In this document: piece after piece, positions 6,449 to 18,230 of the stretch
Layout: each line of letters begins with the position of its first letter
How positions within the stretch are numbered: position 1 is the stretch's first letter
Source of the DNA: Microtetraspora fusca
GTDB taxonomy: Bacteria > Actinomycetota > Actinomycetes > Streptosporangiales > Streptosporangiaceae
Reading direction: 5' to 3'
Assembly: GCF_001570365.1 (NCBI RefSeq)
Contig: NZ_BBYK01000061.1
Coordinates: forward strand, 1 to 64,000
Length of the DNA: 64,000 nt
The notes under the pieces: generated by a model
Seen by the model: only the letters and a program-made list of their open reading frames with translations
Told to the model about the DNA's origin: nothing
The model's database searches: none
Translations under genes and position numbers: made by a program

Positions 6449-6787
6449 ATGAGCGATGAAACGGATACCGGACGCTACCTCCGCCTGACGGTCGACCTGG
6501 TCGTCGAGGTCCAGGATGTGAAGGCGTTGCAGGAGGCGGCCCTGGCGGAGATCCGCCATCCGGACGCCGAGCTTGACGACGACGAGCGCCAGGAGCAGAT
6601 CGAGCTGGTCAACGCGGACGACACGGGTGCGGCGGCCCTCCAGTGGCTGATCGAGCCCGACCACGTCCTCGGCCTGGTCGAGCACGTCAGAGATGTGGAG
6701 CCCCGCGAGGCGATGCTCGGCGTCGAGCCGTCGGACGGCATCCTCGAAGACGAGGACGAGCACGACCACGACGACCACGCGCACTGA
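6449..6787 (+). CDS. acidic hypothetical protein with His/Asp-rich tail
   Basis: A 112-residue, strongly acidic protein. The first 95 residues look globular (RYLRLTVDLVVEVQDVKAL at the start; ALQWLIEPDHVLGLVEHV later). The tail, EDEDEHDHDDHAH, could bind divalent metal. The ATG at 6449 lies 24 bp after ung, behind AGGATC, so it may be cotranscribed. I do not recognise a named family and assign no function. Confidence 0.7.
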   Translation: MSDETDTGRYLRLTVDLVVEVQDVKALQEAALAEIRHPDAELDDDERQEQIELVNADDTGAAALQWLIEPDHVLGLVEHVRDVEPREAMLGVEPSDGILEDEDEHDHDDHAH

Positions 6788-6796
6788 GCACGTACC

Positions 6797-6818
6797 GCGA
6801 GCCCGGCACCGGGCTCGC
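6797..6818. terminator. hairpin after the acidic hypothetical gene
   Basis: GCGAGCCCG and CGGGCTCGC form a perfect 9-bp stem around a 4-nt loop, 10 bp past the stop at 6787. There is no T tract, as is common in actinomycetes. It lies between convergent genes. Confidence 0.6.
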
Positions 6819-7012
6819 AACCGCTGAGAAGTGAGCACGCGCGCTCAGCACGACACTGGGCGCGCCGTCCACTCCGCTTCCCCAGGCTGACGGACCACAA
6901 CCGTCAGCCCCAACACTGCGGACACGCAGTCCACCGGTTTCCGGCCCTCCGCTCCGGGGCGTGCGATGAGCGTTCGCGATGCCGGCGATGGCCGTGTCGG
7001 CCGGGATCATTG

Positions 7013-7960
7013 TCAGGTTTCGAGCAGGTTTTCGCGGTGGGTGGCGAGGGCGTCCCGCTGCCGTGCCAGTTCCTCACATCGAGCGCCGAGATGGCCGAGC
7101 ATGCCGTCGATCCAGCGCGCCACCTCCTGGACCTCCTGGCCGGTCCGCACGATCTTCTGATGCTTGTACATGTCGACGATGAAGTTGTCGAACATCACGT
7201 CGGCGAACCAGCGCGTGTCCACCTTGGGGAGCCGGGGGTGCGCGGTGACCCCGACGTCGGCCAGCTCACGGGAGAACGCGTCGAGCGCCCGCTGCGCCTG
7301 CCAGGCCGCCTGATCGGCGTTCCGGAGATGGCCGTGCTCGACCATGTCGGCGATGCCGCCTCCGCCGAACACGTCCCAGGTGGACGCGCCGCGCGCCCCG
7401 CCGAGAGATCGCAGGACCTGCCCGACGGCGTTGGCCGCCGCCATCCCGGCGTGCCGCGCCTCCTCGTGCTCGCGCAGATCCACCTCGACGTGCGCAAGCC
7501 GCTCGGCGATCTCGGCCAGCTCCCGGCCACGCGGGTCGTCGGAGTCGAGCAGCATCCGCTCCTTGCGGGCGAGCAGCCCGATGAGCTCGCCGTCGGTGTT
7601 CGCCACTTCCGCCAGGCTCGCCTCGGTGGTGCGCAGGTCGGCGGTCAGCCACTCCAGCCGGGTGCGCTGCCCGTGGACGCGCTGCCGTACGGCTTCCGCC
7701 TCGGCGCGCTCGCGGGCGAGCCGCTCCTCCTTGGTGCCGAAGAGCGAGGCGAAGAATCCGCCCTGCTCCAGCTTGACGACGTCCCGATCCTCCTTGGCGA
7801 GCTGCCGCTCCAGCTCGGCGAGCAGCCGGGCGACCTCGTCGATCTGCCCGGTAAGGGTGGCGCGCTGCCGGGTCAGCCGCTCCCGGCGACGGGTCCGCTC
7901 CCTGGCATCGCGGATTTCTCCGTCAAGAGCATCAAAAGAGGTCACATCCACAAGACGCAC
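7013..7960 (-). CDS. coiled-coil protein of unknown function
   Basis: A soluble protein of about 315 residues with no signal peptide or membrane segment. Residues 15-175 are heptad-like and rich in Glu, Arg and Ala, interrupted by a short hydrophobic motif GGFFASLFGTKEERLARERA near residue 70. The C-terminal third is more globular (WFADVMFDNFIVDMYKHQKI) and ends in a second short helix. GTG codons at 7960, 7951 and 7945 are all possible starts and none has a clear ribosome site, so the N-terminus is uncertain by a few residues. I do not recognise the family. It is convergent with the preceding gene and divergent from the hydrolase at 8376. Confidence 0.7.
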   Translation of the reverse strand: MRLVDVTSFDALDGEIRDARERTRRRERLTRQRATLTGQIDEVARLLAELERQLAKEDRDVVKLEQGGFFASLFGTKEERLARERAEAEAVRQRVHGQRTRLEWLTADLRTTEASLAEVANTDGELIGLLARKERMLLDSDDPRGRELAEIAERLAHVEVDLREHEEARHAGMAAANAVGQVLRSLGGARGASTWDVFGGGGIADMVEHGHLRNADQAAWQAQRALDAFSRELADVGVTAHPRLPKVDTRWFADVMFDNFIVDMYKHQKIVRTGQEVQEVARWIDGMLGHLGARCEELARQRDALATHRENLLET

Positions 7961-8375
7961 GAGCGACGGCCAGTGTTCCGTTGCCTGGAATGTGCTCGAA
8001 TGTGCGCACAGGTCAGACAGCCATGACCTTACGGTCCGGCATCCCCCGCATCCGGGGTTCCCGCTTCACCGCCGACCGCCCACCCGAGCTGGGTCTTACC
8101 CCGGCTCCACCGGGACGGCCGATGCCGTCCCGCCCGGTCTTGCCCAGGGCGGCCCTGGTCCTGCGCCGGCGCGCCGACGCCTCACGCGAGCTTCACACGA
8201 TCCAACATACGTTCGATTTCCTTCGCTTACGTTGTCTAGGCTGTGGCCTGCGACCACCGCATGATCTTCGGTCTTCACTCAACCGGTGATCAGCGGCGGC
8301 CGTAGCCGTTGTCCGACAGCCCGGCTCCCCGCCCCGGCTGGCCGAATAGACCGACAATCGGGAGGATTTAGTCCA
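7961..8375. other. gene-free divergent interval
   Basis: About 415 bp between the coiled-coil gene and the hydrolase. Open frames exist but lack ribosome sites and conserved sequence. An inverted repeat AGGTCA/TGACCT with an 8-nt spacer lies at 8010-8029 and could be an operator. I see no confident promoter or RNA gene. Confidence 0.5.
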
Positions 8376-9065
8376 ATGGCGACGTACGTATTGGTCCACG
8401 CTGCGGCGGTCGATTCCTGGTACTGGGGACCGCTCTCCGCCGAACTGCGAGACCGCGGCCACGACGTGGTGGCACCGGACCTGCCGTGTGATGACGAGTC
8501 GGCCGGGCTCGCGGAGTACGCGGACATGGTGGTCGAGGCGATCGGCGGGCGCACCGGTCTGGTCGTCGTCGCCCACTCGTTCGGTGGGTTCACCGGCCCG
8601 CTGGTGTGTGACCGGGTGCCGGCCGACCTGCTCGTGATGCTCCAGGCTCAGATCCCGGCCCCCGGCGAATCGCCGGGCGAATGGTGGGGCAACACCGGCT
8701 ACGGGGCGGCACGAGAGGAAGCCGACCGGCGCAGAGGCGTCGCGGGCGGCACAGAGGAGGACACGCTCTCCCTCATACTGCACGACACCCCGGCTGACCT
8801 GGCCGCCGAATTCGTAGCCGGGCACCAGCGGCAGCAGGCGCCCACCCCTTTCGGCAAGCCGTGGCCGCTGGCCTCCTGGCCTGACGTGCCGACCAGGTTC
8901 CTGCTGGCCGCCGACGACCGCTTCTTCCCGGCCGAGTTCATGCGCGGGATCGTCGCCGAGCGTCTCGGTTTCCAACCGGACGAAATGCCTGGTGACCACT
9001 GCCCGATGCTCGGCCACCCGAAGGAACTGGCCGACCGTCTTGAGGCGTACCGCACCGGGCTCTGA
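8376..9065 (+). CDS. alpha/beta-fold hydrolase
   Basis: A 229-residue hydrolase of the small esterase/hydroxynitrile-lyase-like type. The N-terminus MATYVLVHAAAVDSWYW supplies the first strand and oxyanion region; the nucleophile elbow is AHSFGG (Ser68); a likely acid lies in LLAADDRFFP and the catalytic His is in DHCPMLGHP near the C-terminus. The ATG at 8376 follows GGGAGGATT at 8360-8368; in-frame codons upstream of it lack such a site. The substrate is unknown. It has no operon partner on the same strand. Confidence 0.88.
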   Translation: MATYVLVHAAAVDSWYWGPLSAELRDRGHDVVAPDLPCDDESAGLAEYADMVVEAIGGRTGLVVVAHSFGGFTGPLVCDRVPADLLVMLQAQIPAPGESPGEWWGNTGYGAAREEADRRRGVAGGTEEDTLSLILHDTPADLAAEFVAGHQRQQAPTPFGKPWPLASWPDVPTRFLLAADDRFFPAEFMRGIVAERLGFQPDEMPGDHCPMLGHPKELADRLEAYRTGL

Positions 9066-9215
9066 CCAGCCCGCTCTCACGTCGGCTCGACCAACCGGCC
9101 GGTCAACGACGGCTCCTCCCCACGCCGGCAGTTGCCCCACGACACCGCTCACCCCCGCGCCCTCCTCACTCTGCGCCCCGCTCGCCGTCGCGCAGGCGAT
9201 CCAGCCGGTGACGGC

Positions 9216-10094
9216 TCAGGCGGCGAGTAAGCCGGGGGTGCGGCAAAGCCAGTCGTTGAGCGTTCCGGCGAAGCCGGACGGCGGGCCGACGCTGAGGCAG
9301 GAGCCGTCGGCACGACTGCCGAGCCGTACCCGGAACGGTCGTCGGCCGGGATCGGCGGCGCCGGAGACGCGCATGGACTCGGCGCCGCCTATCCACAGGT
9401 GCTCGCCGATCGTGCGGCATCTCGTCTCGGGGCTCGCGGCGCTCCACGCGAGATGCCCGGGGAGCAGAGACCGCGCCACGGTGCGGAGCACGGAGACGGT
9501 GCAGAGACCGTGCGCGCAGGCGGCCCCCTCCAGCGTGATCTCGGGCAGCCCGAACCTCCGGAGCCCGCGTGTCGCGACGGTGAGGCAGGTGCAGGCGCCG
9601 CTGCCCGCCGGATCCCAGGGCGGGCAGGAGCCGTCGGAGCCGATGTCCGTGCTCCAGCCGAGCCAGTCGTCTTCAAGGCGGAACTCGCCCGGCTCCGCCT
9701 GGTATCCCGTGCGGTGCGGCACGACGCCACCGGTGAGAACGTCGACGATCACACCGCGACAGGCGTCGGCGACGCCGCGGGCCACCGCCCTGGCGACCTG
9801 CACCGCCTCGGGCTGCTCGGCGACCGGCGCGGTGGCGGTGACCACGACGTGATGACGGGCCGCGTGGAGCGCGGCACGCCCCTCGTCGCCGAGACTCGTT
9901 CGCCGCCACGGCGACTGGGCGGCGGGGAACACCCGCAGGTCGAGCCTGGGCGTGCCGATCACCCGCGAGGCGGCCCTCCGGTGCGGCCCGCTCATCCGCC
10001 ACGGGACGACCGCGTCCAGATCGACCGGCCGCCGATCGGCGGCGACGACGAACACCGAGGTGGTCTCGGCCGGGACGGGATAGGTGATCTTCAT
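9216..10094 (-). CDS. unrecognised protein, last gene of the putative peptide cluster
   Basis: A 292-residue soluble protein with no signal or membrane segment. It is Cys-containing in its second half (GSGACTC, AACAHGLC, ETRCRT) and has a well-ordered middle (FRLEDDWLGWSTDIGSDGSC; RGLRRFGLPEITLEGA). Some wording recalls bacterial DUF4026/DUF4261-type proteins, but I cannot place it. The ATG at 10094 follows GGAGG by a normal spacing. It starts 38 bp after the stop of the M50-type gene, so it is probably the last gene of the five-gene cluster that includes the ThiF-like enzyme. Possible roles include immunity or tailoring; neither is supported by sequence. Confidence 0.75.
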   Translation of the reverse strand: MKITYPVPAETTSVFVVAADRRPVDLDAVVPWRMSGPHRRAASRVIGTPRLDLRVFPAAQSPWRRTSLGDEGRAALHAARHHVVVTATAPVAEQPEAVQVARAVARGVADACRGVIVDVLTGGVVPHRTGYQAEPGEFRLEDDWLGWSTDIGSDGSCPPWDPAGSGACTCLTVATRGLRRFGLPEITLEGAACAHGLCTVSVLRTVARSLLPGHLAWSAASPETRCRTIGEHLWIGGAESMRVSGAADPGRRPFRVRLGSRADGSCLSVGPPSGFAGTLNDWLCRTPGLLAA

Positions 10095-10132
10095 GAGGGC
10101 CTCCTGTCGCTCCTGGAGACCCCAGCCTGCGG

Positions 10133-11443
10133 TCACGCGCGGCGGCCCGGCTCCACCGAACACCGCTCTGTGGAAAACTCCGGCTCATCCACAGCCGGGC
10201 GAGAGCCACCGGCCCGGACGGGAGCCCCAAGGAGCGCGGCGGCCGACGCGAACCATCGCCTGATCCTGGGCCCGTGCCTGCGCCACCACGTGCGCGCCCA
10301 GAGCCCCTGGACCCCGGCCAGGACCGTGACCACGATCGCAGCGTCGACGATCGCCGCCCCCTCGCCGCCGTTCAACAGGGTGTCGATCGCGGGCATCGCG
10401 ATGGCCGCGAGGGCCGGCACCACGATCGTCGCCGCGACCGCCAGGCACACCGCCGTGCCCAGCACGAGCAGCATCGTGTAGAGGCGCACCGCGGAGCGCT
10501 CCCGCCGTGAGAACCGGGCCAGCGGGCTCGCGCCGTCCCGGCCCAGCAGGCGGGCGATCAGGTAGCGCCCGTACGCCACGCCGTCGCCGTACAGGTTCCG
10601 GCATCCGGCGAGGTCCTGGGCCACGAAGTAGAGGTCGGTACGCATGAAGATGAGGAGTTGGAAGCTCATCGCGTCGATCTGCGTCAGCACGACGATGGAC
10701 AGGGCGGTGTGGGCGCCCTCCTCCGGAGGCACGACGCACAACAGGACGAATCCGGCGGCGGCGATGGCGGCGTCCAGCGCCATGCCGGCGAGATAGACGG
10801 TCATCCGGACCCGCTTCTCCTCGCCCCAGACGCCGGAGACGTCCGTCTGCACCACGAGGAACTGCAGGCGCGAGCCGAGGGTGATCCGTCCGGGCACCCC
10901 GGCGGCCCGCGCCGTGCACAGGTGGGCGAGTTCGTGCAGCATGACCAGGGACCAGGCGATGGCGATCTGGGTGACCAGCGAGACGGTGCCGAACTCGCTC
11001 CAGGCCATGATGCTCGGGCTCGGCATGATCTCCGGCCGTACGGCGAGGGCGGCCAGGCCGGCAAGGATGAACGCCACCAGCCCGATGTGCACCCCTGACC
11101 TCAGTGTCCACCGGACGTGGCGCGGTTTCAGCCAGGGCAGCGAGGGGCTCTCCCGCCCGGTGTCGCCGGTGGGCCGTCCATCGATCTCGGCGACGAAGCC
11201 GACGTCGATCAGAGCCGCGACGAAGTCGGCCACGTCGATGGTCGTCCCGGTCTCGGCGGCGACGCGTGCGGCCACGGCGTCGATGGGCCCGCCCTCGGCC
11301 AGCAACTCGATGACCCGCTGCCCGATGTCCGGAAAGGACACGAAGTTTCCGGTCTCGACCCGCCCGACGATCCAGTCGTCGCCGTCGCGGCGCGATCGGA
11401 GCGGGTGCAGCCGCACGCGGGACGCTCCGGTCACCGCGTGCAT
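10133..11443 (-). CDS. membrane M50-type zinc metallopeptidase with PqqD-like N-terminal domain
   Basis: A protein of about 436 residues. Residues 1-90 (DDWIVGRVETGNFVSFP; VIELLAEGGPIDAVAARV; FVAALIDVGFV) resemble a PqqD-like peptide-recognition domain. A membrane domain follows with HELAH near residues 169-173, the HExxH zinc site of M50 intramembrane peptidases, plus LAGMALDAAIAAAGF and about six or more membrane segments. Related PqqD/M50 proteins process or export ribosomal peptides. ATG 11443 overlaps the ThiF-like gene's stop by 13 bp; a GTG at 11452 is an alternative start. The overlap means coupled translation. Cleavage of the peptide encoded at 12797 is the natural guess but is inference. 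Confidence 0.85.
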   Translation of the reverse strand: MHAVTGASRVRLHPLRSRRDGDDWIVGRVETGNFVSFPDIGQRVIELLAEGGPIDAVAARVAAETGTTIDVADFVAALIDVGFVAEIDGRPTGDTGRESPSLPWLKPRHVRWTLRSGVHIGLVAFILAGLAALAVRPEIMPSPSIMAWSEFGTVSLVTQIAIAWSLVMLHELAHLCTARAAGVPGRITLGSRLQFLVVQTDVSGVWGEEKRVRMTVYLAGMALDAAIAAAGFVLLCVVPPEEGAHTALSIVVLTQIDAMSFQLLIFMRTDLYFVAQDLAGCRNLYGDGVAYGRYLIARLLGRDGASPLARFSRRERSAVRLYTMLLVLGTAVCLAVAATIVVPALAAIAMPAIDTLLNGGEGAAIVDAAIVVTVLAGVQGLWARTWWRRHGPRIRRWFASAAALLGAPVRAGGSRPAVDEPEFSTERCSVEPGRRA

Positions 11444-12576
11444 ACGGCGCACCCCGCTTCACCTCGCGGGAACTCGGCGTAGATCGGCTGCTGCGGGGCG
11501 ATGAGGTTGGTGCCCTGGATGAAGCCGGCGGTGATCGGGGGCACTCCGGTGATGACCCGGAGGACGCCCTGGGCGACGAGGTTGCCGCACAGCCCCGCCG
11601 ACGTGGCGATGGCGCCCGGCCCTCCGAGGTCGACGGGACGGTACGCGGCGTCCGTCCGTTTTCGGTCCTCGATGCGTTGCATGCACTCGTAGCAGGCCCC
11701 TCGCCCCGGCACGAAGACGCCCGTGGTGACGAGAGGGCCGCTGTAGCCGCCGCCCACCCACGGCACCCCCGCCGCGAAGCAGGCCCGGTTGGCCCAGACG
11801 CGGATGCCGTCCTCGCCTCTGGGCTCGTCGGCGCACATGGCGAGCACGTCGAACCCCGGCAGCAGGTCGGCCAGGTCTCCTTCGTCGCGGACGCGCGCCG
11901 ACACGCCGGACACCTCGATGTCGGAGTTCAGCGTCATCAACCGCTCGACGGCGACCTCCACCTTGGGCCGGCCGATGTCGTCCTCGGCGAAGATGAGCTG
12001 CCGGTTGAGGTTGGACAGCTCGACCACGTCGTCGTCGATCAGGTGCAGGGCGCCCACGCCGGAGGCGGCCAGGGCCAGCGCGGCCGACGCGCCCGCGCCG
12101 CCGACACCGACCAGGAGCACTCGTGACCGGCGCAATCTGAGCTGGGCGTCCCAGCCGCACTCGCGCGGGGTGAGGTCGGCCCACCGGAAGAACGCGTGGC
12201 CCCGGCTGTATCGCTCGCGCTCCCGGCTGCTCAGCTCGGGGGCCTCCGTCGCTCCCGCGTCCTCGATGTGGCCGGTGCCGACGAGCTGCGCGACGATCGC
12301 CACCGCGTCGTGCCGGGTCAGTTCCGGGAAGCCCGCGCGCACCACCTCGGCGACGTCCGCGCAGGTGCGCGTGCCGTTCATCGCTTCGAGAGCCGTCCAC
12401 GCCCAGCCGTGGGGGTCGTTGATTTCATGGGCCAGCCCGTAGATGTCGCCTCCGATGCGTATCCGGCCGTCGTCGAGGCGGTGGGCCGCGTGCTCGGGTT
12501 TTATTCTCGGCAACCGCAATCGGGCCTCCCGTAAAGGTGTGAAACCGCTCTCTTGCCACCCGGACGCCGTCTCCAT
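11431..12576 (-). CDS. E1/ThiF-MccB-like adenylating enzyme with PqqD-like leader-binding domain
   Basis: A 381-residue protein. Residues 35-105 form a PqqD-like recognition element (RIRIGGDIYGLAHEIND; TALEAMNGTRTCADVAEVV). Residues 150-381 are an E1/ThiF fold: nucleotide loop GVGGAG (157-162), acidic cluster DDDVVELSNLNRQ (181-193), and zinc pairs CYEC (295-298) and CAVC (376-379). Enzymes of this kind adenylate a peptide C-terminus or side chain; MccB acts on a C-terminal Asn and PaaA makes pantocin. No YcaO or ligase partner is present, which argues against azoline formation. ATG 12576 is preceded by a GGGGAAAG site; longer in-frame starts are possible. It overlaps the M50-type gene. Confidence 0.88.
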   Translation of the reverse strand: METASGWQESGFTPLREARLRLPRIKPEHAAHRLDDGRIRIGGDIYGLAHEINDPHGWAWTALEAMNGTRTCADVAEVVRAGFPELTRHDAVAIVAQLVGTGHIEDAGATEAPELSSRERERYSRGHAFFRWADLTPRECGWDAQLRLRRSRVLLVGVGGAGASAALALAASGVGALHLIDDDVVELSNLNRQLIFAEDDIGRPKVEVAVERLMTLNSDIEVSGVSARVRDEGDLADLLPGFDVLAMCADEPRGEDGIRVWANRACFAAGVPWVGGGYSGPLVTTGVFVPGRGACYECMQRIEDRKRTDAAYRPVDLGGPGAIATSAGLCGNLVAQGVLRVITGVPPITAGFIQGTNLIAPQQPIYAEFPRGEAGCAVCTR

Positions 12577-12645
12577 GCGCTTTCCCCGCCGCGACCCGCC
12601 TGCTTTCCCCTTTCCCGTCCGCGCGCACGCCGGCGAAGAAGGCGG

Positions 12646-12676
12646 AAAAAGACACGGGCGGCCCGACAAAGGGCCG
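12646..12676 (-). terminator. candidate attenuator between precursor peptide and ThiF-like gene
   Basis: On the minus strand CGGCCC and GGGCCG pair around TTTGTC (12659-12676), and a TTTTT run follows about 8 nt later (12646-12650). It sits in the 220-bp gap after the peptide gene. Partial termination here would give more peptide mRNA than enzyme mRNA, as in many RiPP operons. The stem is only 6 bp. Confidence 0.45.
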
Positions 12677-12796
12677 GATAAGAAAGGAAAAGGCGCACCG
12701 AAAGGCAGATAAAGGCGTACGGGGTCCGGGAAACGCGGAGAGCCGCGATCGGGCGCCGGAAAGGCCTCCGCTCGTGGCTCCGCCTGCGATGCGGGA

Positions 12797-12973
12797 TCAG
12801 TTTCCCGTGGAGTTGCTCAGCCGTTCGGTGGTTTCCAGCCGGTCGAGCCTGCGAATCTCGATCTTGACCGCTCCCTCGCTGGAGGTGTTTTCCACAGGCT
12901 TGTTCTCGTCGAGGTCCCTGAGTTCGCTCACGAGCTTCCTCTTTTCGTCGCACGCCTGGTTGACATTGCCCAC
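12797..12973 (-). CDS. candidate RiPP precursor peptide ending in Asn
   Basis: A short gene of 58 codons from GTG 12973, or 44 from GTG 12931. The second start has the better ribosome site (AGAGGAAG about 4-6 nt upstream). The peptide is charged, with a helical-looking middle (GAVKIEIRRLDRLETTERL) and a small, polar, Gly/Ser/Thr/Asn-rich end (LSNSTGN) whose last residue is Asn. A charged leader with a polar C-terminal core, lying between an exporter and an E1-like enzyme with a leader-binding domain, fits a RiPP precursor. C-terminal Asn is the residue adenylated in microcin C precursors. I know no named family that matches; it could instead be a small regulatory protein. Confidence 0.6.
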   Translation of the reverse strand: MGNVNQACDEKRKLVSELRDLDENKPVENTSSEGAVKIEIRRLDRLETTERLSNSTGN

Positions 12974-13058
12974 CAATTAGTGGTCGGCGCGGATGTCAGA
13001 TTAGATCATCGGCCACGTGAGGGAAAGATGTGATTTCCAGCGAATTTCAAGCTCTTCG

Positions 13059-14348
13059 TCAGGGGGCTTTGAGCGATGTCGGCGTCGCCTCCGCCGCCCC
13101 GTCCGGGGCGACCGGAGCGACGTCGCTGTGGAAACGCGTCATTCCACGGAAGAAGAGGGCGGCGAGCGGCACGGTGAATCCGCCGACCGTGCCGATCGCC
13201 AGCAGCGCCGACCGGCCGATCATCGCGCTGACCGGACCGGTGAGCGCCAGCCCGAGGGGCATCATGACGGAGGAGGCCAGCCAGTCCACCGACGTGACGC
13301 GGGCGAGCCGCTCCGGAGGGATCTCGCGCTGCAGGTTCATGACCCACTGCACGGCGAAGATCTCCAGCCCCAGCCCGGCGACGATGTAGCAGCCGTACAG
13401 GAACTCCGGCGACACCGGCCAGATGAGGGCGAGCGGCACGGCTCCGTACAGCGCGAGCCCGATGACGCCGGTCAGCCCGGCCCGGCCGGGTTTCCATTTC
13501 ATGCTGACGACCCCGCCCGCCAGGCCGCCGACCGAGAGCAGGGCGAGGGCGGTGCCGTACACGGCGTCGCCGCCGAACGTGTCGCGGGAGACCAGGGGCA
13601 GCAGGACCTGCGTGGGCGCGACCGTGAGCATGAGCTGGAGCGCGACGGCGATGATGACTCCGGTCACCCAGGGCCGCCGCAGCACTTCGGAGAGGCCGTC
13701 CGCGATCTCTCGTGCGGCCGAGGAACGCGGGGCGGCGGCGACCGGGGGTTCCCGCAGCGGCAGGAGCAGGAGGAGGCCGAGCAGGTAGGCCGCCAGCACG
13801 GCGAGGAACCCGATCCGGGGAGACCAGACGGTCACCACGTACGCGCCGAGCCCCGGCCCGACGATGGCGCCGATCCGCCAGGAGACCGCGCCCATCGCGA
13901 CGCCCGTCGGACGTTGCTCGGGGGTGAGGACGGACGACAGGCACGCCTGGTACGCGGGCCGGTGGAACGCCTCCGCGGCCCCGACGAGGAAGACCAGGAC
14001 GGCGAGGAGCGGCGCGGGGGCGTCGCCGCGCAACCCGACGGCGACCACGCAGCACTGGAAGCCCAGGGAGACGGTCATGACCGTCCTGCGAGGCAGCCGG
14101 TCCGCCCACAACCCGCCGAGCAGCGCGAAAAGGATCAGCGCGATCCACCGGCCGGTGAATATCGCGCCCACGGTCGAGGCTGTCCCACCCGAGTTCAGGG
14201 CCGCGATGGTCACCGTGACCGGGAAGATCTGGTCGGCCGCCACCGACATCGTGAAGCTGAGCCACAGCAGTCGAAACTCACGGTTTCGCACCAGGGATCC
14301 ATCGGCGGGGCGGCGCGGACGAATGAGCCTTCGCGAACGGGCGCGCAT
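13059..14348 (-). CDS. MFS transporter, likely exporter of the cluster
   Basis: A 429-residue major facilitator with 12 predicted segments. The family A-loop motif is seen as GGLWADRLPRRTVM between segments 2 and 3, and the overall form (RNREFRLLWLSFTMSVAADQIF at the start; enterobactin-exporter/MFS_3-like) fits drug or siderophore-type efflux. ATG 14348 is used; ATG 14360 is possible and neither has a strong ribosome site. It is the first gene of the minus-strand run and ends 85 bp before the candidate peptide, so it may export the product, provide self-resistance, or both. The substrate is inferred only from position. Confidence 0.88.
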   Translation of the reverse strand: MRARSRRLIRPRRPADGSLVRNREFRLLWLSFTMSVAADQIFPVTVTIAALNSGGTASTVGAIFTGRWIALILFALLGGLWADRLPRRTVMTVSLGFQCCVVAVGLRGDAPAPLLAVLVFLVGAAEAFHRPAYQACLSSVLTPEQRPTGVAMGAVSWRIGAIVGPGLGAYVVTVWSPRIGFLAVLAAYLLGLLLLLPLREPPVAAAPRSSAAREIADGLSEVLRRPWVTGVIIAVALQLMLTVAPTQVLLPLVSRDTFGGDAVYGTALALLSVGGLAGGVVSMKWKPGRAGLTGVIGLALYGAVPLALIWPVSPEFLYGCYIVAGLGLEIFAVQWVMNLQREIPPERLARVTSVDWLASSVMMPLGLALTGPVSAMIGRSALLAIGTVGGFTVPLAALFFRGMTRFHSDVAPVAPDGAAEATPTSLKAP

Positions 14349-14407
14349 GCACGAAATCATCCCTGCCCGGTCGAATCAGGCAAGAGATGCGATTTCCCGC
14401 CTACAGC

Positions 14408-15250
14408 TCAAACGGGATGCTTCTCGCCCTCACGCGGCTCGAAGCCCCCGCACTTTCCCCGACCGCCCGTTCGAGGACTCACCCCGGGTTCGGGGGGGCG
14501 TACGACGGCGGAGGCGAGGAGATACTGGCCGACGATATACGTGGCCATGATGGCGAACCCCCGGTATGGGAAGTCGAGGTCGGCGATCCCGAACGCGATG
14601 AGCGTGTCCGACAGGAAGAACAACCCGCCGCCGACGCCCGCTCGCAGTCCGTACCACGACGAGGTGATGGCGGTGGCGGTGAGCAGCAGGGAGTACGCGG
14701 CGACCGGAACCTGGAGCGCGCCGAGCCCGGGCCAGAGGAAGGCGACGAGGGCCACCCACACCACCGCGTAGGCCGCCACCGACATCCACCACCGGACCGG
14801 TCGACGCCCGTGCCTTCCATCACCGGCCGTGCTCCCCGCGTCGCCTCCGGTTCCGGTCACGCCCACGGAATCGGACGCGGCGGAGGCCCGGAACGCGGGC
14901 CGCTCCCGCACGAAGAAGGTGATGTAGCAGATGTGCGCGAGGGCGAAGAACCCCATGCCGGGAACGAACATCCCGTCGATCTCCAGCGCGATGTCTCCCG
15001 CGGTGGAGGCCAGGAGAGCCGCCACGATGATCCCGGGGCCGCGTCTGGCGAGCACCCAGAGCGCGAGAAGGGGCATCAGCAGGCCCTTGGTCACCGGGTC
15101 GACCAGGCCGAGCCCGGCGAGCCCCGCGACCAGATGGACCACCGAGCACACCCAGAAGAGGACCAGCAACGGCCCGGCGACCCGGGCCGGAGCACCGGCG
15201 GCACGACCTGACAGAACGGCGTTCGGTTGCTCAGCCATGGAGGGGATCAT
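14408..15250 (-). CDS. YhhN-family membrane protein (lysoplasmalogenase-like)
   Basis: About 280 residues with eight predicted membrane segments. Family marks include GDIALEIDGMFVPGMGFFALAH, GVGGGLFFLSDTLIAF and YIVGQYLL; the conserved aspartates in the GD and SD pairs are thought to be catalytic in TMEM86/YhhN lysoplasmalogenases, which cleave the vinyl-ether bond of lysoplasmalogens. A charged insert (residues 125-155) separates membrane segments 4 and 5. ATG 15250 has GAGG about 10 nt upstream; ATG 15238 is an alternative. Whether this bacterium makes plasmalogens is unknown, so the reaction is a family-based inference. Confidence 0.85.
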   Translation of the reverse strand: MIPSMAEQPNAVLSGRAAGAPARVAGPLLVLFWVCSVVHLVAGLAGLGLVDPVTKGLLMPLLALWVLARRGPGIIVAALLASTAGDIALEIDGMFVPGMGFFALAHICYITFFVRERPAFRASAASDSVGVTGTGGDAGSTAGDGRHGRRPVRWWMSVAAYAVVWVALVAFLWPGLGALQVPVAAYSLLLTATAITSSWYGLRAGVGGGLFFLSDTLIAFGIADLDFPYRGFAIMATYIVGQYLLASAVVRPPEPGVSPRTGGRGKCGGFEPREGEKHPV

Positions 15251-15352
15251 AGTGAGCGGGCCTCACGTCAGTAAGACCCCCTGGCAGGGCGAACACCGAC
15301 CCGCGCCGCCAGAGGTCCAGAATGGCGCGGCCCCGTATCCGACCCCCGGTGG

Positions 15353-17167
15353 TCAGGTCATCCGGAAGACCGGCCCTCTCGGGCGGAACGGGAGGTGCGC
15401 CCCGGCGGGGATCAGGAAGGCGTGCTCCCTGCGGATCCGCACGACGTCGCACGCGCCGTCGGTGATCACCAGGATCGGCCCGTCCGCCGGGAAGTCGTCC
15501 GCCCGCTCCAGCAGGTCGATCCCGGGCTGGAGGACCGTGCCGCCCCGGCCCCGTACGCGGACCTTCGCGGCGATGTCCTCGACCGCGAGATACCCCGCGT
15601 CGTACGCCGCGGCGTCGCAGAACACCACGCGGGCGCGCGGCACGTCCCTGGCGACCGCGTAGGAGGCGATGGCGCCCAGCGCCTTGCCGAGCAGCTTCGC
15701 GTCCATCGAGCCGGACGTGTCCAGTACGACGCCGAAGGTGGCCTGCCGTACGACTTCCTCGGGACGGGTCCAGCCGGGGCGCGGGATGTCCGGCGTGGCC
15801 GACTGCCGCCGCGAGGCCCGGCCGTAGGAGCGGCGGCGCTCGACGGCGGGCAGGTGCTCCTCGAACCAACGCGCGAGCGCGGCGTCCCACGGCAGCGGGG
15901 GCTGGTCGAGCGCGCGGATCTCCTCTTCGAGGCCCGCGGGGACGTCGCCGCGGCCGCTGCCGCGGTGGTAGACGAGACCGCTCGCGAGCGCGTTCCGGTA
16001 GTAGTCGTCGAGGTCGACGTACCGTCCCGGGGCTCCGGGACGCGGCAGCGGCTCGCCCAGCACGTCGCCGATCCCGCGCCCGCGCAGGGTGGCCAGCTTG
16101 CGCATCCGGCGTAGGTCTCCGGCGATCCGGTCGTAGACGGCCTCGCCGGACAGCCCCTTGAGTGACGGGTCGTAGAGGAGCCCCTCCGGCATCGTCCCGA
16201 CGCCCATCTCGACCAGCCAGCCGTTGATGACGTAATCGCAGGCCACGTTCCACAGGTACGGGTCACGCCACCCGGCCCGGTCGCCGTGCCGCAGCGCCGC
16301 ATGCAGCATCTCGTGGGCCAGCACGAAGCGCCATTCGTGCGTCGTCATCGTCACCAGCGGGTTGACGTAGATCTCGGCGGCCTGGGCGTTGACGGCGGCG
16401 ATCGAGATGTTCCAGGCGCGGGTCAGGTCCGCGTCCGCGACGATCGTCATGCCGGTCGCGAGCGCGCCCAGCAGCGGGTACGACGACACGAACCAGCCCA
16501 GGGCGACGTCCCACGGCTTCTTGACGACGTCGGTGAGCGAGCTCCTGGCGCCGCCCGCGACCTCGATCGCCCGGGTCGCGGCGGCCGACACGCCGATCGC
16601 GAACGAGCGCGGGAAGTCGAGCCGGGCGGCGATCTCCTCACTCCCGGCGAAGAAGTCCGGGAACCCCGTGATCCGGTAGTCGGCGGGCACCCCGGTGACG
16701 TGCCACCGCGCGGCCAGCGTCCGCTCGTCCTCCTCCGGGAGCGGATGCGGCAGGGGCTCCGGCGGCCGGCCGATTTTCAGGGTGTGGAGGAACCGGTCGA
16801 CGGCCAGGCAGCACGCGGCGCGGTACGCGGCCGAAGGCGCGCGTTTCGGCCCGTTCCATCCCGCGGCCTCGTCCGGCCCCAGGTCCTCGGCGGCGGCCGA
16901 GCGGGGATCGAGGTGGCCGAACCCGGCGTGCAGCAGGCAGTGGGCGAAGACCCAGGCCCACTCGGCCGGGTCCGCCCGCTTCTTCGGGTGGTGGTGCACG
17001 CTGCCGCCCGCCGTGATGTACGCCCACGCGTCCTTGGGCAGCTCGCCGTCCCGGGCCTCGTACAGGTAGCCGCGCAGCGTCCCGAACAGCGGGTGCCCCG
17101 CCATCAGGCCCCACCCTTTGTGCACGGCGTCGCGCCAGGGGTCCGCCTTCTTCTCGCGCCGGGACAC
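15353..17167 (-). CDS. DUF2201-type putative metallopeptidase with VWA-like domain
   Basis: About 604 residues. The N-terminal two-thirds is the putative metallopeptidase domain found with VWA partners: LAHEMLHAALRHGD carries an HExxH zinc site, with a further conserved segment WNVACDYVINGWLV. The C-terminal part is VWA-like: VVLDTSGSMDAKLL is the MIDAS DxSxS motif and ILVITDGACD the later Asp. The GTG at 17167 lies 1 nt after the stop of the MoxR gene, so the pair is coupled. MoxR-VWA pairs act as chaperone-like systems for complex assembly or metal insertion; the client here is unknown. Confidence 0.88.
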   Translation of the reverse strand: MSRREKKADPWRDAVHKGWGLMAGHPLFGTLRGYLYEARDGELPKDAWAYITAGGSVHHHPKKRADPAEWAWVFAHCLLHAGFGHLDPRSAAAEDLGPDEAAGWNGPKRAPSAAYRAACCLAVDRFLHTLKIGRPPEPLPHPLPEEDERTLAARWHVTGVPADYRITGFPDFFAGSEEIAARLDFPRSFAIGVSAAATRAIEVAGGARSSLTDVVKKPWDVALGWFVSSYPLLGALATGMTIVADADLTRAWNISIAAVNAQAAEIYVNPLVTMTTHEWRFVLAHEMLHAALRHGDRAGWRDPYLWNVACDYVINGWLVEMGVGTMPEGLLYDPSLKGLSGEAVYDRIAGDLRRMRKLATLRGRGIGDVLGEPLPRPGAPGRYVDLDDYYRNALASGLVYHRGSGRGDVPAGLEEEIRALDQPPLPWDAALARWFEEHLPAVERRRSYGRASRRQSATPDIPRPGWTRPEEVVRQATFGVVLDTSGSMDAKLLGKALGAIASYAVARDVPRARVVFCDAAAYDAGYLAVEDIAAKVRVRGRGGTVLQPGIDLLERADDFPADGPILVITDGACDVVRIRREHAFLIPAGAHLPFRPRGPVFRMT

Positions 17168-17168
17168 G

Positions 17169-18230
17169 TCAGCTCCGCGCGGCGGCGAGCCGGGGCAGGT
17201 CCCGGCTGACCTCGACGAGGAACCACGAGGGCAGCACCGGAGCGCCGTCGTCTCCCGTGGCGATGACGAGCTGGGCGCATTCAAGCGAGATCTCGGCCAG
17301 CTCGACGAGCAGCGTCTTGGCCCGGTAGGCGAGCTGCCTCCCGTCCGGCGGAGCGTGCTCCTTCGACCCGGGCAGCCCCCGGATGAGGCGCGCGCGGAAC
17401 GTCTCGGCCAGGAAGTAGAGCAGGTCGCGGTTCTCCGGGTCGCGCGGCCAGCCCGCGTCGCCCTTGAGCACGGCGTCCAGGTCGTAGGCGTGCCGCACCG
17501 TCTTCACGTACGCCCGGAACGCCGAGGCGTGCGCGGCGGTGAGGGTGCCGTGCGCGAGCACGCCCAGCATGTCGTCGTCGATGCCCTGGCCATAGGAGTG
17601 GAGGGCGTCGGAGAGCATGTGCCAGCCGCGCGGCGTGGAGAACGGCTCTTCCACCTTCGGCGCGGCGCTCCACAGGTGGTCCGGGCGCTGCGTGAGGTAG
17701 CCGACGATCCACGGGTGGATGCCGTGGTCGGCCGCCCATTTCAGCCAGTCGTCGGCCGAGGCCCGCAGGTGGACGTGCACCATCCGGTTGACCAGGGCGG
17801 ACGCCATCGGCCTGGCGAGGGCGTTGTCGGTCGCCCGGTTGCCCGCGCCGATGACGACCGACCCTTCGGGCAGCTCGTACGTGCCGATGCGGCGGTCGAG
17901 GATCAGGGAGTAGAACGCCTTCTGCACCTCGGGAGCCGAGGCGTTGAGCTCGTCGAGGAAGAGGCAGTACGGCTCGGCCCTGGCGATGGTCTCCGGCGGT
18001 GCGAACCTGCTCCGGCCGTCCACGATCTGCGGCACGCCGATGAGGTCCTCCGGCGCGAGCTGGGTGCCGAGCAGCGTGACGCAGTCCAGCCCGAGCGACT
18101 CGGCGAACGCCTGGACCAGCGAGCTCTTCCCGATGCCGGGCGCGCCCCAGAGGAACACCGGACGCACGACGGCGACGTGCAGCAGCACGTCGGGAAGCTG
18201 CGCCGGGGTCACGGTCAGAGCGGCCTGCAT
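17169..18230 (-). CDS. MoxR-family AAA+ ATPase
   Basis: A 353-residue MoxR-type ATPase. Walker A is GAPGIGKSS (residues 29-37); the Walker B region is YCLFLDELNASAPEVQ; sensor 1 is VVIGAGNRATDN. ATG 18230 is chosen because the Walker A then sits at the usual distance from the N-terminus; no strong ribosome site is visible. It is directly upstream of the metallopeptidase/VWA gene. Known MoxR proteins remodel a partner protein through the VWA protein. It lies 117 bp downstream of treZ and may have its own promoter. Confidence 0.92.
   Translation of the reverse strand: MQAALTVTPAQLPDVLLHVAVVRPVFLWGAPGIGKSSLVQAFAESLGLDCVTLLGTQLAPEDLIGVPQIVDGRSRFAPPETIARAEPYCLFLDELNASAPEVQKAFYSLILDRRIGTYELPEGSVVIGAGNRATDNALARPMASALVNRMVHVHLRASADDWLKWAADHGIHPWIVGYLTQRPDHLWSAAPKVEEPFSTPRGWHMLSDALHSYGQGIDDDMLGVLAHGTLTAAHASAFRAYVKTVRHAYDLDAVLKGDAGWPRDPENRDLLYFLAETFRARLIRGLPGSKEHAPPDGRQLAYRAKTLLVELAEISLECAQLVIATGDDGAPVLPSWFLVEVSRDLPRLAAARS

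What the first reader, a model, noticed from the sequence alone, without database searches (positions are those of the whole stretch)
9216..14348. Compact five-gene locus that looks like a new ribosomal-peptide (RiPP) pathway
In one minus-strand run: MFS exporter, a 44-58 residue peptide with a charged leader-like part and a polar Gly/Ser/Thr/Asn tail ending in Asn, an E1/ThiF-like enzyme with a PqqD-like front domain, a PqqD-like/M50 membrane peptidase overlapping it by 13 bp, and an unrecognised 292-residue protein. No YcaO, lanthipeptide synthetase or radical-SAM enzyme is present, so none of the common RiPP classes fits. E1-like RiPP enzymes are known from microcin C (MccB) and pantocin (PaaA). 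The domains and their order are seen; the pathway is inference.
Basis: partly seen in the sequence, partly recalled or inferred. Interest (0 to 1): 0.78.

Follow-up and report, generated by a model that had tools for sequence, protein, structure and literature searches.

The report
Actinomycete ThiF ribosomal-peptide gene cluster
A small gene cluster in a soil actinomycete appears to make a tiny ribosomal peptide that a ThiF-like enzyme modifies at its tail, probably closing it into a six-residue ring, and relatives of the cluster are common in its order.

Summary
On the minus strand lie an MFS exporter, a 44-codon peptide, an RRE-ThiF enzyme, a PqqD-M50 peptidase and a 292-residue protein.

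It is a RiPP locus of the ThiF/E1-like kind. The enzyme's best solved relatives are PaaA and MccB, its ATP-site residues are invariant in 51 sequences, and its model has an N-terminal RRE. A peptide with one leader motif (KIEIRRLDRLETT-like) lies beside 141 of 168 distinct ThiF genes and in 34 of 34 later loci (28 not repeats). The 292-residue protein is not a conserved part.

The Asn ending is common but dispensable: 12 of 33 distinct cores in the closest set end otherwise, so simple microcin C chemistry is unlikely for the family. What is kept there is Ser or Cys exactly six residues from the C-terminus (32 of 33; random mean 9.7). I propose that ThiF adenylates the C-terminal carboxylate and Ser(-6) attacks it, giving a six-residue lactone (thiolactone with Cys). 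The M50 protein then removes the leader and the MFS protein exports the product.

The RiPP reading is strong; the lactone is inference. In the wider family the -6 rule holds in only 50 of 92 cores.

The parts
13059..14348 (-). MFS exporter gene (probable product export)
   Evidence: MFS_1 8.6e-35; strong homologue (E<1e-100) in the same locus in 10 of 10 distinct members of the window's own ThiF clade
12797..12931 (-). precursor peptide gene, 44 aa MSELRDLDENKPVENTSSEGAVKIEIRRLDRLETTERLSNSTGN, GTG start
   Evidence: conserved frame and RBS in 6 relatives; leader motif hit 40.5 bits, only one in the window
12827..12865 (-). leader motif KIEIRRLDRLETT (predicted RRE-binding strand)
   Evidence: motif found at 141 of 168 distinct ThiF loci and 34 of 34 later loci
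12800..12826 (-). core region ERLSNSTGN; Ser39 (12815-12817) is the predicted nucleophile at -6 and Asn44 the C-terminus
   Evidence: S/C at -6 in 32 of 33 distinct cores of the closest set
12935..12941 (-). ribosome-binding site GAGGAAG of the peptide
   Evidence: sequence, conserved upstream block
11431..12519 (-). RRE-ThiF adenylyltransferase, 362 aa, TTG start (longest frame to 12669)
   Evidence: ThiF 2.5e-50; PaaA 2e-53 and MccB 1.6e-52 by profile; AF2 model pLDDT 92.8; Foldseek top hit MccB 6.1e-26
12250..12519 (-). RRE (winged-helix) domain of the ThiF protein, about residues 1-90
   Evidence: model elements E4-6 E20-22 E31-33 H39-46 H53-63 H69-81 E85-87; aligned with the PaaA N-terminus
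10133..11443 (-). PqqD-like/M50 membrane metallopeptidase, probable leader peptidase
   Evidence: PqqD 0.0053 and M50 0.0038, both under the Pfam cut-off; HExxH in 105 of 105 homologues near thiF (repeats included), 104 of 105 with [RQ]TDxY
9216..10094 (-). 292-aa protein of unknown family, same operon here but not a conserved part
   Evidence: beside thiF in 5 of the 73 genomes with a homologue

Best explanation
A leader-dependent RiPP pathway. The precursor's KIxIRRLDxxETT strand docks on the RRE of the ThiF-like enzyme (inferred from family precedent). The enzyme uses ATP to adenylate the C-terminal carboxylate of the core (inferred; the catalytic residues are shown to be invariant). The side chain of Ser39, six residues from the C-terminus (Cys in some relatives), attacks and releases AMP, closing a six-residue lactone, Ser-Asn-Ser-Thr-Gly-Asn (thiolactone with Cys). 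This is inferred from position conservation and predicts a loss of 18 Da. The PqqD-M50 membrane peptidase removes the leader and the MFS protein exports the product (inferred). If cleavage falls just before Ser, an O-to-N acyl shift could turn the lactone into a head-to-tail cyclic hexapeptide of the same mass.
For: RiPP identity: leader motif and controls, 34 of 34 later loci, 28 of them not repeats. Active adenylating enzyme: R173, K186, D231 (numbering of the 362-aa protein) and C276/C279 invariant in 51 rows, C357/C360 in at least 90%; R, K and D match, by my reading, the ATP/Mg residues reported for EnfB (PMC12250964, section read). Relatives PaaA/MccB with the RRE. Cyclisation site: S/C at -6 in 32 of 33 distinct cores of the closest set versus a permutation mean of 9.7 and maximum 21 in 20,000 draws; anchored to the C-terminus, not the leader (leader-anchored positions reach 16 of 33 at most, and 12 of 22 at +9); core length 7-11; two of the 32 are Cys. 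On the tree, 65 of 68 rows of the containing clade follow the rule. In four further loci of the same family 3 of 4 follow it (AVSGSIGN, GWPASHGNSN twice; not RMSWESG). Other subclades keep Cys at -5 (TLCMSEA, SFCATEM, GFCGDNA) or Lys at -5 (KAVSR, KAVAR, KQIDS), as expected if a nucleophile is what matters. The C-terminal residue varies (N, S, A, T, Q), as expected if only its carboxylate is used. Known ThiF RiPP enzymes activate a carboxylate that an internal nucleophile attacks (PMC12150305, parts 1-2 of 3 read; PMC12250964, sections read).
Against: No chemistry was tested. Exceptions in the close set: GLNQSEA and RMSWESG. Wider set 50 of 92 only; Streptomyces GDSGGNGG(S/A/G) has Ser at -7, and a distant branch (INRGGQSG, KLREGSG, GLREGG) has Arg-containing cores and no rule: in the set under 240 bits 3 of 26 cores have S/C at -6, about the permutation mean of 2.7. 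Of the 14 distinct cores new, 7 have S/C at -6, and one of these (DSKAVAR) belongs to the Lys type. The permutation test does not correct for relatedness. 11 of 77 distinct ThiF proteins in the closest set have no detected precursor. Asn is still the commonest ending in the close set (21 of 33). M50 was found near only 96 of 168 distinct ThiF genes (a lower bound, since many stretches were 4-6 kb), so leader removal may often be done by something else.
Confidence: 0.45

Rival explanations
1. Microcin C-type pathway: the ThiF protein is an MccB that nucleotidylates the C-terminal Asn (N-P bond) of a long leader-bearing MccA, the M50 protein trims it and the MFS protein is an MccC-like exporter; the product is a Trojan-horse aminoacyl-tRNA synthetase inhibitor.
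For: Window core ends ...STGN; MccA is MRTGNAN (PMC12250964). MccB is the top structural hit. MFS exporter in the locus. Long MccA precursors exist in Hyalangium (PMC7157772, passages). Asn is the commonest ending in the close set, 21 of 33.
Against: All MccA precursors in the MccB survey end in Asn (PMC6495379, passages), but 12 of 33 distinct close cores do not, including two in the window's own seven-member clade (SNSTGA in L061, SNPSGS in L149) with open ThiF frames. The tree needs at least 10 changes of the Asn label, 6 forced by starred branches (quick tree). No MccE/MccF/HIT-type immunity gene among the nine window proteins scanned.
Confidence: 0.2
2. Another ThiF reaction on the C-terminus: macrolactam, imide (EnfB-like), C-terminal amidation, or a pantocin-like internal cyclisation, with Ser/Cys(-6) kept for binding or for leader cleavage just before it.
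For: ThiF RiPP enzymes are chemically diverse (PMC12250964, PMC12150305). PaaA is the best profile hit. A fixed residue at -6 could mark a cleavage site giving a hexapeptide. Lys(-5) cores would suit a lactam in that subclade.
Against: Residues just before Ser/Cys(-6) vary widely (L, M, I, A, P, Y, C, D, K, F, S), unlike a cleavage motif; Ser/Cys interchange at one position fits a nucleophile best.
Confidence: 0.25
3. Not a RiPP: the peptide frame and the neighbouring enzyme genes are unrelated, or the ThiF protein serves protein modification.
For: ThiF-family proteins are mostly non-RiPP (PMC12150305); no peptide was detected at 27 of 168 distinct loci.
Against: Motif placement and controls; RRE fusion; protein-level conservation of the motif-core part.
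Confidence: 0.04

Closest known systems
Pantocin A enzyme PaaA (5ff5)
   Same: RRE plus ThiF architecture, best profile match, starting in the RRE (2e-53)
   Different: The pantocin pathway cyclises a Glu-Glu pair (recalled); the window core has one Glu, outside the conserved hexapeptide, and a conserved Ser/Cys at -6
Microcin C enzyme MccB (3h5n, 6om4)
   Same: Closest fold (Foldseek 6.1e-26), ATP-dependent action at a peptide C-terminus, MFS exporter in the locus, window core ends in Asn
   Different: Terminal Asn not conserved across close relatives; leader motif, M50 peptidase; no immunity gene among the window proteins scanned
Streptococcal and enterococcal ThiF RiPP enzymes GrcB, IndF, EnfB
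   Same: RRE-ThiF; an activated carboxylate attacked by an internal nucleophile to make a macrocycle (PMC12250964, PMC12150305)
   Different: Other residues and ring types: Glu-Cys thiolactone (described in one passage of the review as an internal Glu side chain onto a C-terminal Cys), Trp-Ile indolylamide, C-terminal imide; different precursors; GRC also has radical-SAM enzymes
Staphylococcal autoinducing peptides (AgrD/AgrB)
   Same: Predicted product class: short tail plus a small (thio)lactone ring closed by Ser or Cys onto the C-terminus
   Different: AgrB is a membrane peptidase, not a ThiF enzyme; rings of five residues; different precursors (review section, and recall)
Daptide intramembrane metalloprotease (NF041824)
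   Same: Weak sequence relation of the M50 protein (1.7e-6)
   Different: Far below that family's cut-off (27.4 vs 300 bits); no other daptide family matched in the nine proteins scanned

Membership tests
ThiF-like-adenylyltransferase RiPPs (broad kind) | RRE fused to a ThiF domain with intact ATP-site residues | tested here: met
ThiF-like-adenylyltransferase RiPPs (broad kind) | Small precursor gene conserved beside the enzyme gene | tested here: met
   141 of 168 distinct ThiF loci, 34 of 34 later loci, controls
ThiF-like-adenylyltransferase RiPPs (broad kind) | No YcaO partner (which would make the ThiF a docking protein) | tested here: met
   None among the nine window proteins scanned, 7013-17284
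ThiF-like-adenylyltransferase RiPPs (broad kind) | ATP-dependent modification of the precursor | not testable with these tools
   Needs enzyme assay and mass spectrometry
Microcin C family | MccB-like enzyme | tested here: met
   but PaaA scores equally by profile
Microcin C family | Precursor with a C-terminal Asn conserved among relatives | tested here: not met
   Window yes; 12 of 33 distinct close cores end otherwise; at least 10 changes on the tree
Microcin C family | Immunity gene (MccE, MccF or HIT hydrolase) | tested here: inconclusive
   None among the nine window proteins scanned; the rest of the genome was not searched
Pantocin A family | Precursor with the Glu-Glu core | tested here: not met
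   Core ERLSNSTGN; the defining feature itself is recalled
GRC-type RiPPs | Radical-SAM enzymes and C-terminal Cys | tested here: not met
   No radical-SAM match in the scanned window proteins apart from a 13.5-bit chance-level hit in the 292-aa protein; the core ends in Asn
Agr autoinducing peptides | AgrB peptidase and AgrD precursor in the locus | tested here: not met
   No such family among the nine window proteins scanned

The most novel reading that the evidence does not exclude
A widespread actinomycete RiPP class in which a ThiF/E1-like enzyme closes the C-terminal carboxylate onto a Ser or Cys exactly six residues upstream. It would make small peptide lactones and thiolactones of autoinducing-peptide shape by ATP-dependent chemistry instead of AgrB, possibly as signalling peptides.
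Probability: 0.35. Interest if true: 0.75.

Novelty: new variant of a known kind. Interest (0 to 1): 0.6.

Why it matters
The enzyme occurs in 87 of 297 genomes sampled from the order and in 27 of 295 sampled from one genus (unnamed, but five of its contig lengths equal those of Streptomyces contigs). In the three annotated plasmid records viewed, the precursor is not in the gene table and the enzyme is only 'ThiF family adenylyltransferase' (that gene table is incomplete). Among the ThiF RiPP reactions described in the papers I read, I saw none that joins the C-terminal carboxylate to a Ser side chain, so a lactone here would be a new reaction for the family. It would also give genetically encoded, ATP-driven peptide lactones that are easy to test in vitro with a 44-residue synthetic precursor.

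Tried and rejected
Microcin C reading: my first idea after because the core ends STGN; dropped as the lead after the wider cores showed other endings. The 292-residue protein as a pathway part: rejected; its AF2 model was too poor to use (pLDDT 44.8), so no fold search was run on it. M14 carboxypeptidase (27 of 81 loci) as a general partner: rejected, it is confined to a part of the family (0 of 77 distinct ThiF rows in the closest set). DUF6879 protein (20 of 81 loci): a partner in part of the family, absent beside the window locus; no paper in the library names it. A hairpin with a T-run between the peptide and thiF as an attenuator: not better than shuffles (z -0.38). Promoter scan: 0 found; terminator-like patterns 4 against 1.4 in shuffles, none used. 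Precursors at the 29 loci without a hit: a looser search gave one variant, MKIQAKKVESVRTTAVAA in Brevibacillus L133; a listing of small frames at 16 of the 29 gave a sub-threshold motif peptide in L072 (...APSQGNSN) and, in Pseudonocardiales, different tiny frames just upstream of thiF such as MIEFIEVARETTFSSPTQQS; not pursued. NCBIfam has no family for three precursors tried. Literature: papers with the leader or core strings: 0 found. Searches with ThiF plus RiPP/Streptomyces/M50/lactone terms showed no description of this family in the titles, abstract starts and passages that I saw. The global RRE-ThiF network of PMC12150305 (27,400 candidates) very likely contains these enzymes; its supplement was not available to me.
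Full report
What is there. On the minus strand of 9216-14348 lie, in order, an MFS exporter (13059-14348), a 44-codon peptide (12797-12931), an RRE-ThiF protein (11431-12519), a PqqD-like/M50 membrane peptidase (10133-11443, overlapping the ThiF stop by 13 bp) and a 292-residue protein (9216-10094). The host genome is G000; the nearest ThiF relatives are Microtetraspora (95-96% to M. malaysiensis). The peptide starts at GTG: one relative has ATG there, and the conserved block just upstream is a ribosome-binding site. The ThiF start is TTG at 12519 behind GGGAGG, the point at which the called homologues L035 and L036 begin.

The ThiF protein looks like an adenylating RiPP enzyme, not a docking protein. 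Its best matches among solved structures are MccB and PaaA, with single sequence (4e-31 and 7e-29) and with a 51-row profile (PaaA 2e-53 over the RRE and part of the catalytic domain, MccB 1.6e-52). R173, K186, D231, C276 and C279 are invariant in 51 rows and C357/C360 in at least 90%. R, K and D correspond to the ATP/Mg residues described for EnfB (PMC12250964, section 5 read; the residue match is my reading). The AlphaFold2 model has mean pLDDT 92.8 and an N-terminal strand-strand-strand-helix-helix-helix-strand unit of RRE type. Foldseek ranks MccB first (6.1e-26) and PaaA next among other proteins (1.3e-22).

The peptide belongs to it. A position-weight scan built from thirty of these finds 177 hits within 2 kb of thiF in 193 loci, 1 hit further away (a second precursor in L063 at 2.6 kb) and 0 in the same DNA reversed. 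After removing repeats of the same locus from two collections, 141 of 168 distinct ThiF proteins have a precursor. The 27 ThiF proteins without a hit include 11 of 77 in the closest set; a frame under threshold (L072, core ...APSQGNSN) and different tiny upstream frames in Pseudonocardiales suggest that some of these are misses. Conservation of the window peptide among its seven closest sequences is clear in the motif and core (third-position changes exceed first in 16 of 21 pairs over the last 24 codons, tie in 3, below in 2) and weak in the front half.

The core. In the closest set (ThiF score at least 330 bits to the window protein) there are 33 distinct cores, 7-11 residues long. Ser or Cys stands at position -6 in 32 of 33 (two are Cys: GDLKCGNSNS, TTYCGNSNS); random draws within cores give a mean of 9.7 and at most 21 in 20,000. 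Counted from the leader no position exceeds 16 of 33 (12 of 22 at +9), so the anchor is the C-terminus. On a quick ThiF tree of 139 rows the containing clade has the rule in 65 of 68 rows. Against this: GLNQSEA and the later RMSWESG break it. In all 92 distinct cores it holds in 50; the Streptomyces group GDSGGNGG(S/A/G) has Ser at -7, and a distant branch has Arg-containing cores (INRGGQSG, KLREGSG, GLREGG) with no rule (3 of 26 under 240 bits, permutation mean 2.7). Of 14 cores new, 7 have Ser/Cys at -6 and 2 others Ser at -7; four have Lys at -5 (QNKAVSR, ETKAVSR, QNKQIDS, and DSKAVAR, which is also one of the seven). The permutation does not correct for relatedness.

Why not simply microcin C. 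The window core ends in Asn, and MccA is MRTGNAN (PMC12250964, section 2 part 1 read). A survey of MccB relatives states that all their precursors end in Asn, needed for the N-P bond (PMC6495379, passages). Here 21 of 33 close cores end in Asn and 12 do not (8 S, 2 A, 1 T, 1 Q). Two of the 12 are in the window's own seven-member clade, L061 (SNSTGA) and L149 (SNPSGS), whose ThiF frames are open. The Asn label changes at least 10 times on the tree, 6 of them forced by well-supported branches. So Asn-specific chemistry does not fit the family, though it is not excluded for Asn-ending members.

Proposed mechanism (steps shown / inferred). Shown: precursor, RRE-ThiF, conserved catalytic residues, conserved Ser/Cys(-6) in the closest set. 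Inferred: the leader strand binds the RRE; ATP activates the C-terminal carboxylate; Ser39 attacks to give a six-residue lactone; the M50 protein (HExxH in 105 of 105 homologues near thiF, [RQ]TDxY in 104 of 105, repeats included) removes the leader; the MFS protein exports. Precedents: IndF joins the C-terminal carboxylate to a Trp indole nitrogen (PMC12150305, parts 1-2 of 3 read); EnfB makes an imide and GrcB a Glu-Cys thiolactone (PMC12250964, sections 4 and 5 read). I saw no Ser side chain joined to the C-terminal carboxylate in those texts.

Conserved and unconserved partners. MFS: in 10 of 10 distinct members of the window's clade, otherwise rare. M50: 96 of 168 distinct ThiF loci, a lower bound because many stretches were 4-6 kb, on the same strand in 105 of 105 hits. 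M14 carboxypeptidase: 27 of 168, none in the closest 77 (Pfam 9.2e-12). DUF6879: 20 of 81 loci. The 292-residue protein: beside thiF in 5 of the 73 genomes (of 200) that have a homologue, no Pfam match, poor model.

Verdict. Observation confirmed; RiPP interpretation strong; 'new pathway' is right in the sense of an apparently undescribed family within the known ThiF-RiPP kind (literature searches; open-access library only, no supplements). The lactone is a specific, testable inference at about even odds.

Noticed in passing
L049 (G000:C64), about 6672-9055: The window's own genome holds a second ThiF-M50 locus of a sister type with a 20-residue precursor MKIEIKKVEEVETTGNSNSC; similar precursors (cores GNSNSC or SNSNGC) lie in L051, L052 and L054. 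These cores end in Cys.
   Followed up: partly
L199-L201, L203-L205, L207 and L168/L169: Close ThiF relatives (338-383 bits) for which no precursor of the known motif was found; a 71-residue frame MQYGADRV...PATGTV is shared by three of the six L199-L207 loci listed, on the other strand.
   Followed up: partly
L114, L119, L123, L125, L128: Pseudonocardiales thiF loci have different tiny frames 80-150 nt upstream (MIEFIEVARETTFSSPTQQS, MAMIEFHEVDDEEMTFSGTDSEA and similar), perhaps a second leader type; in L114, L119 and L123 genes of an AfsR-like TPR regulator family flank thiF.
   Followed up: partly
L215-L239 except L220 and L229 (distant branch): Precursors with leaders such as KLEIKRLEKVETT and Arg-containing short cores (GLREGG, KLREGSG, INRGGQSG) with no Ser/Cys(-6); the ThiF reaction there must differ or use another nucleophile.
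   Followed up: no
L260-L263, L281: Cores from the genus searched with Lys at -5 and no Cys (QNKAVSR, ETKAVSR, DSKAVAR, QNKQIDS), which would suit a lactam ring.
   Followed up: no
window 12640-12700: A CGGCCC/GGGCCG hairpin followed by a T-run between the peptide and thiF on the minus strand; not more stable than shuffles.
   Followed up: yes
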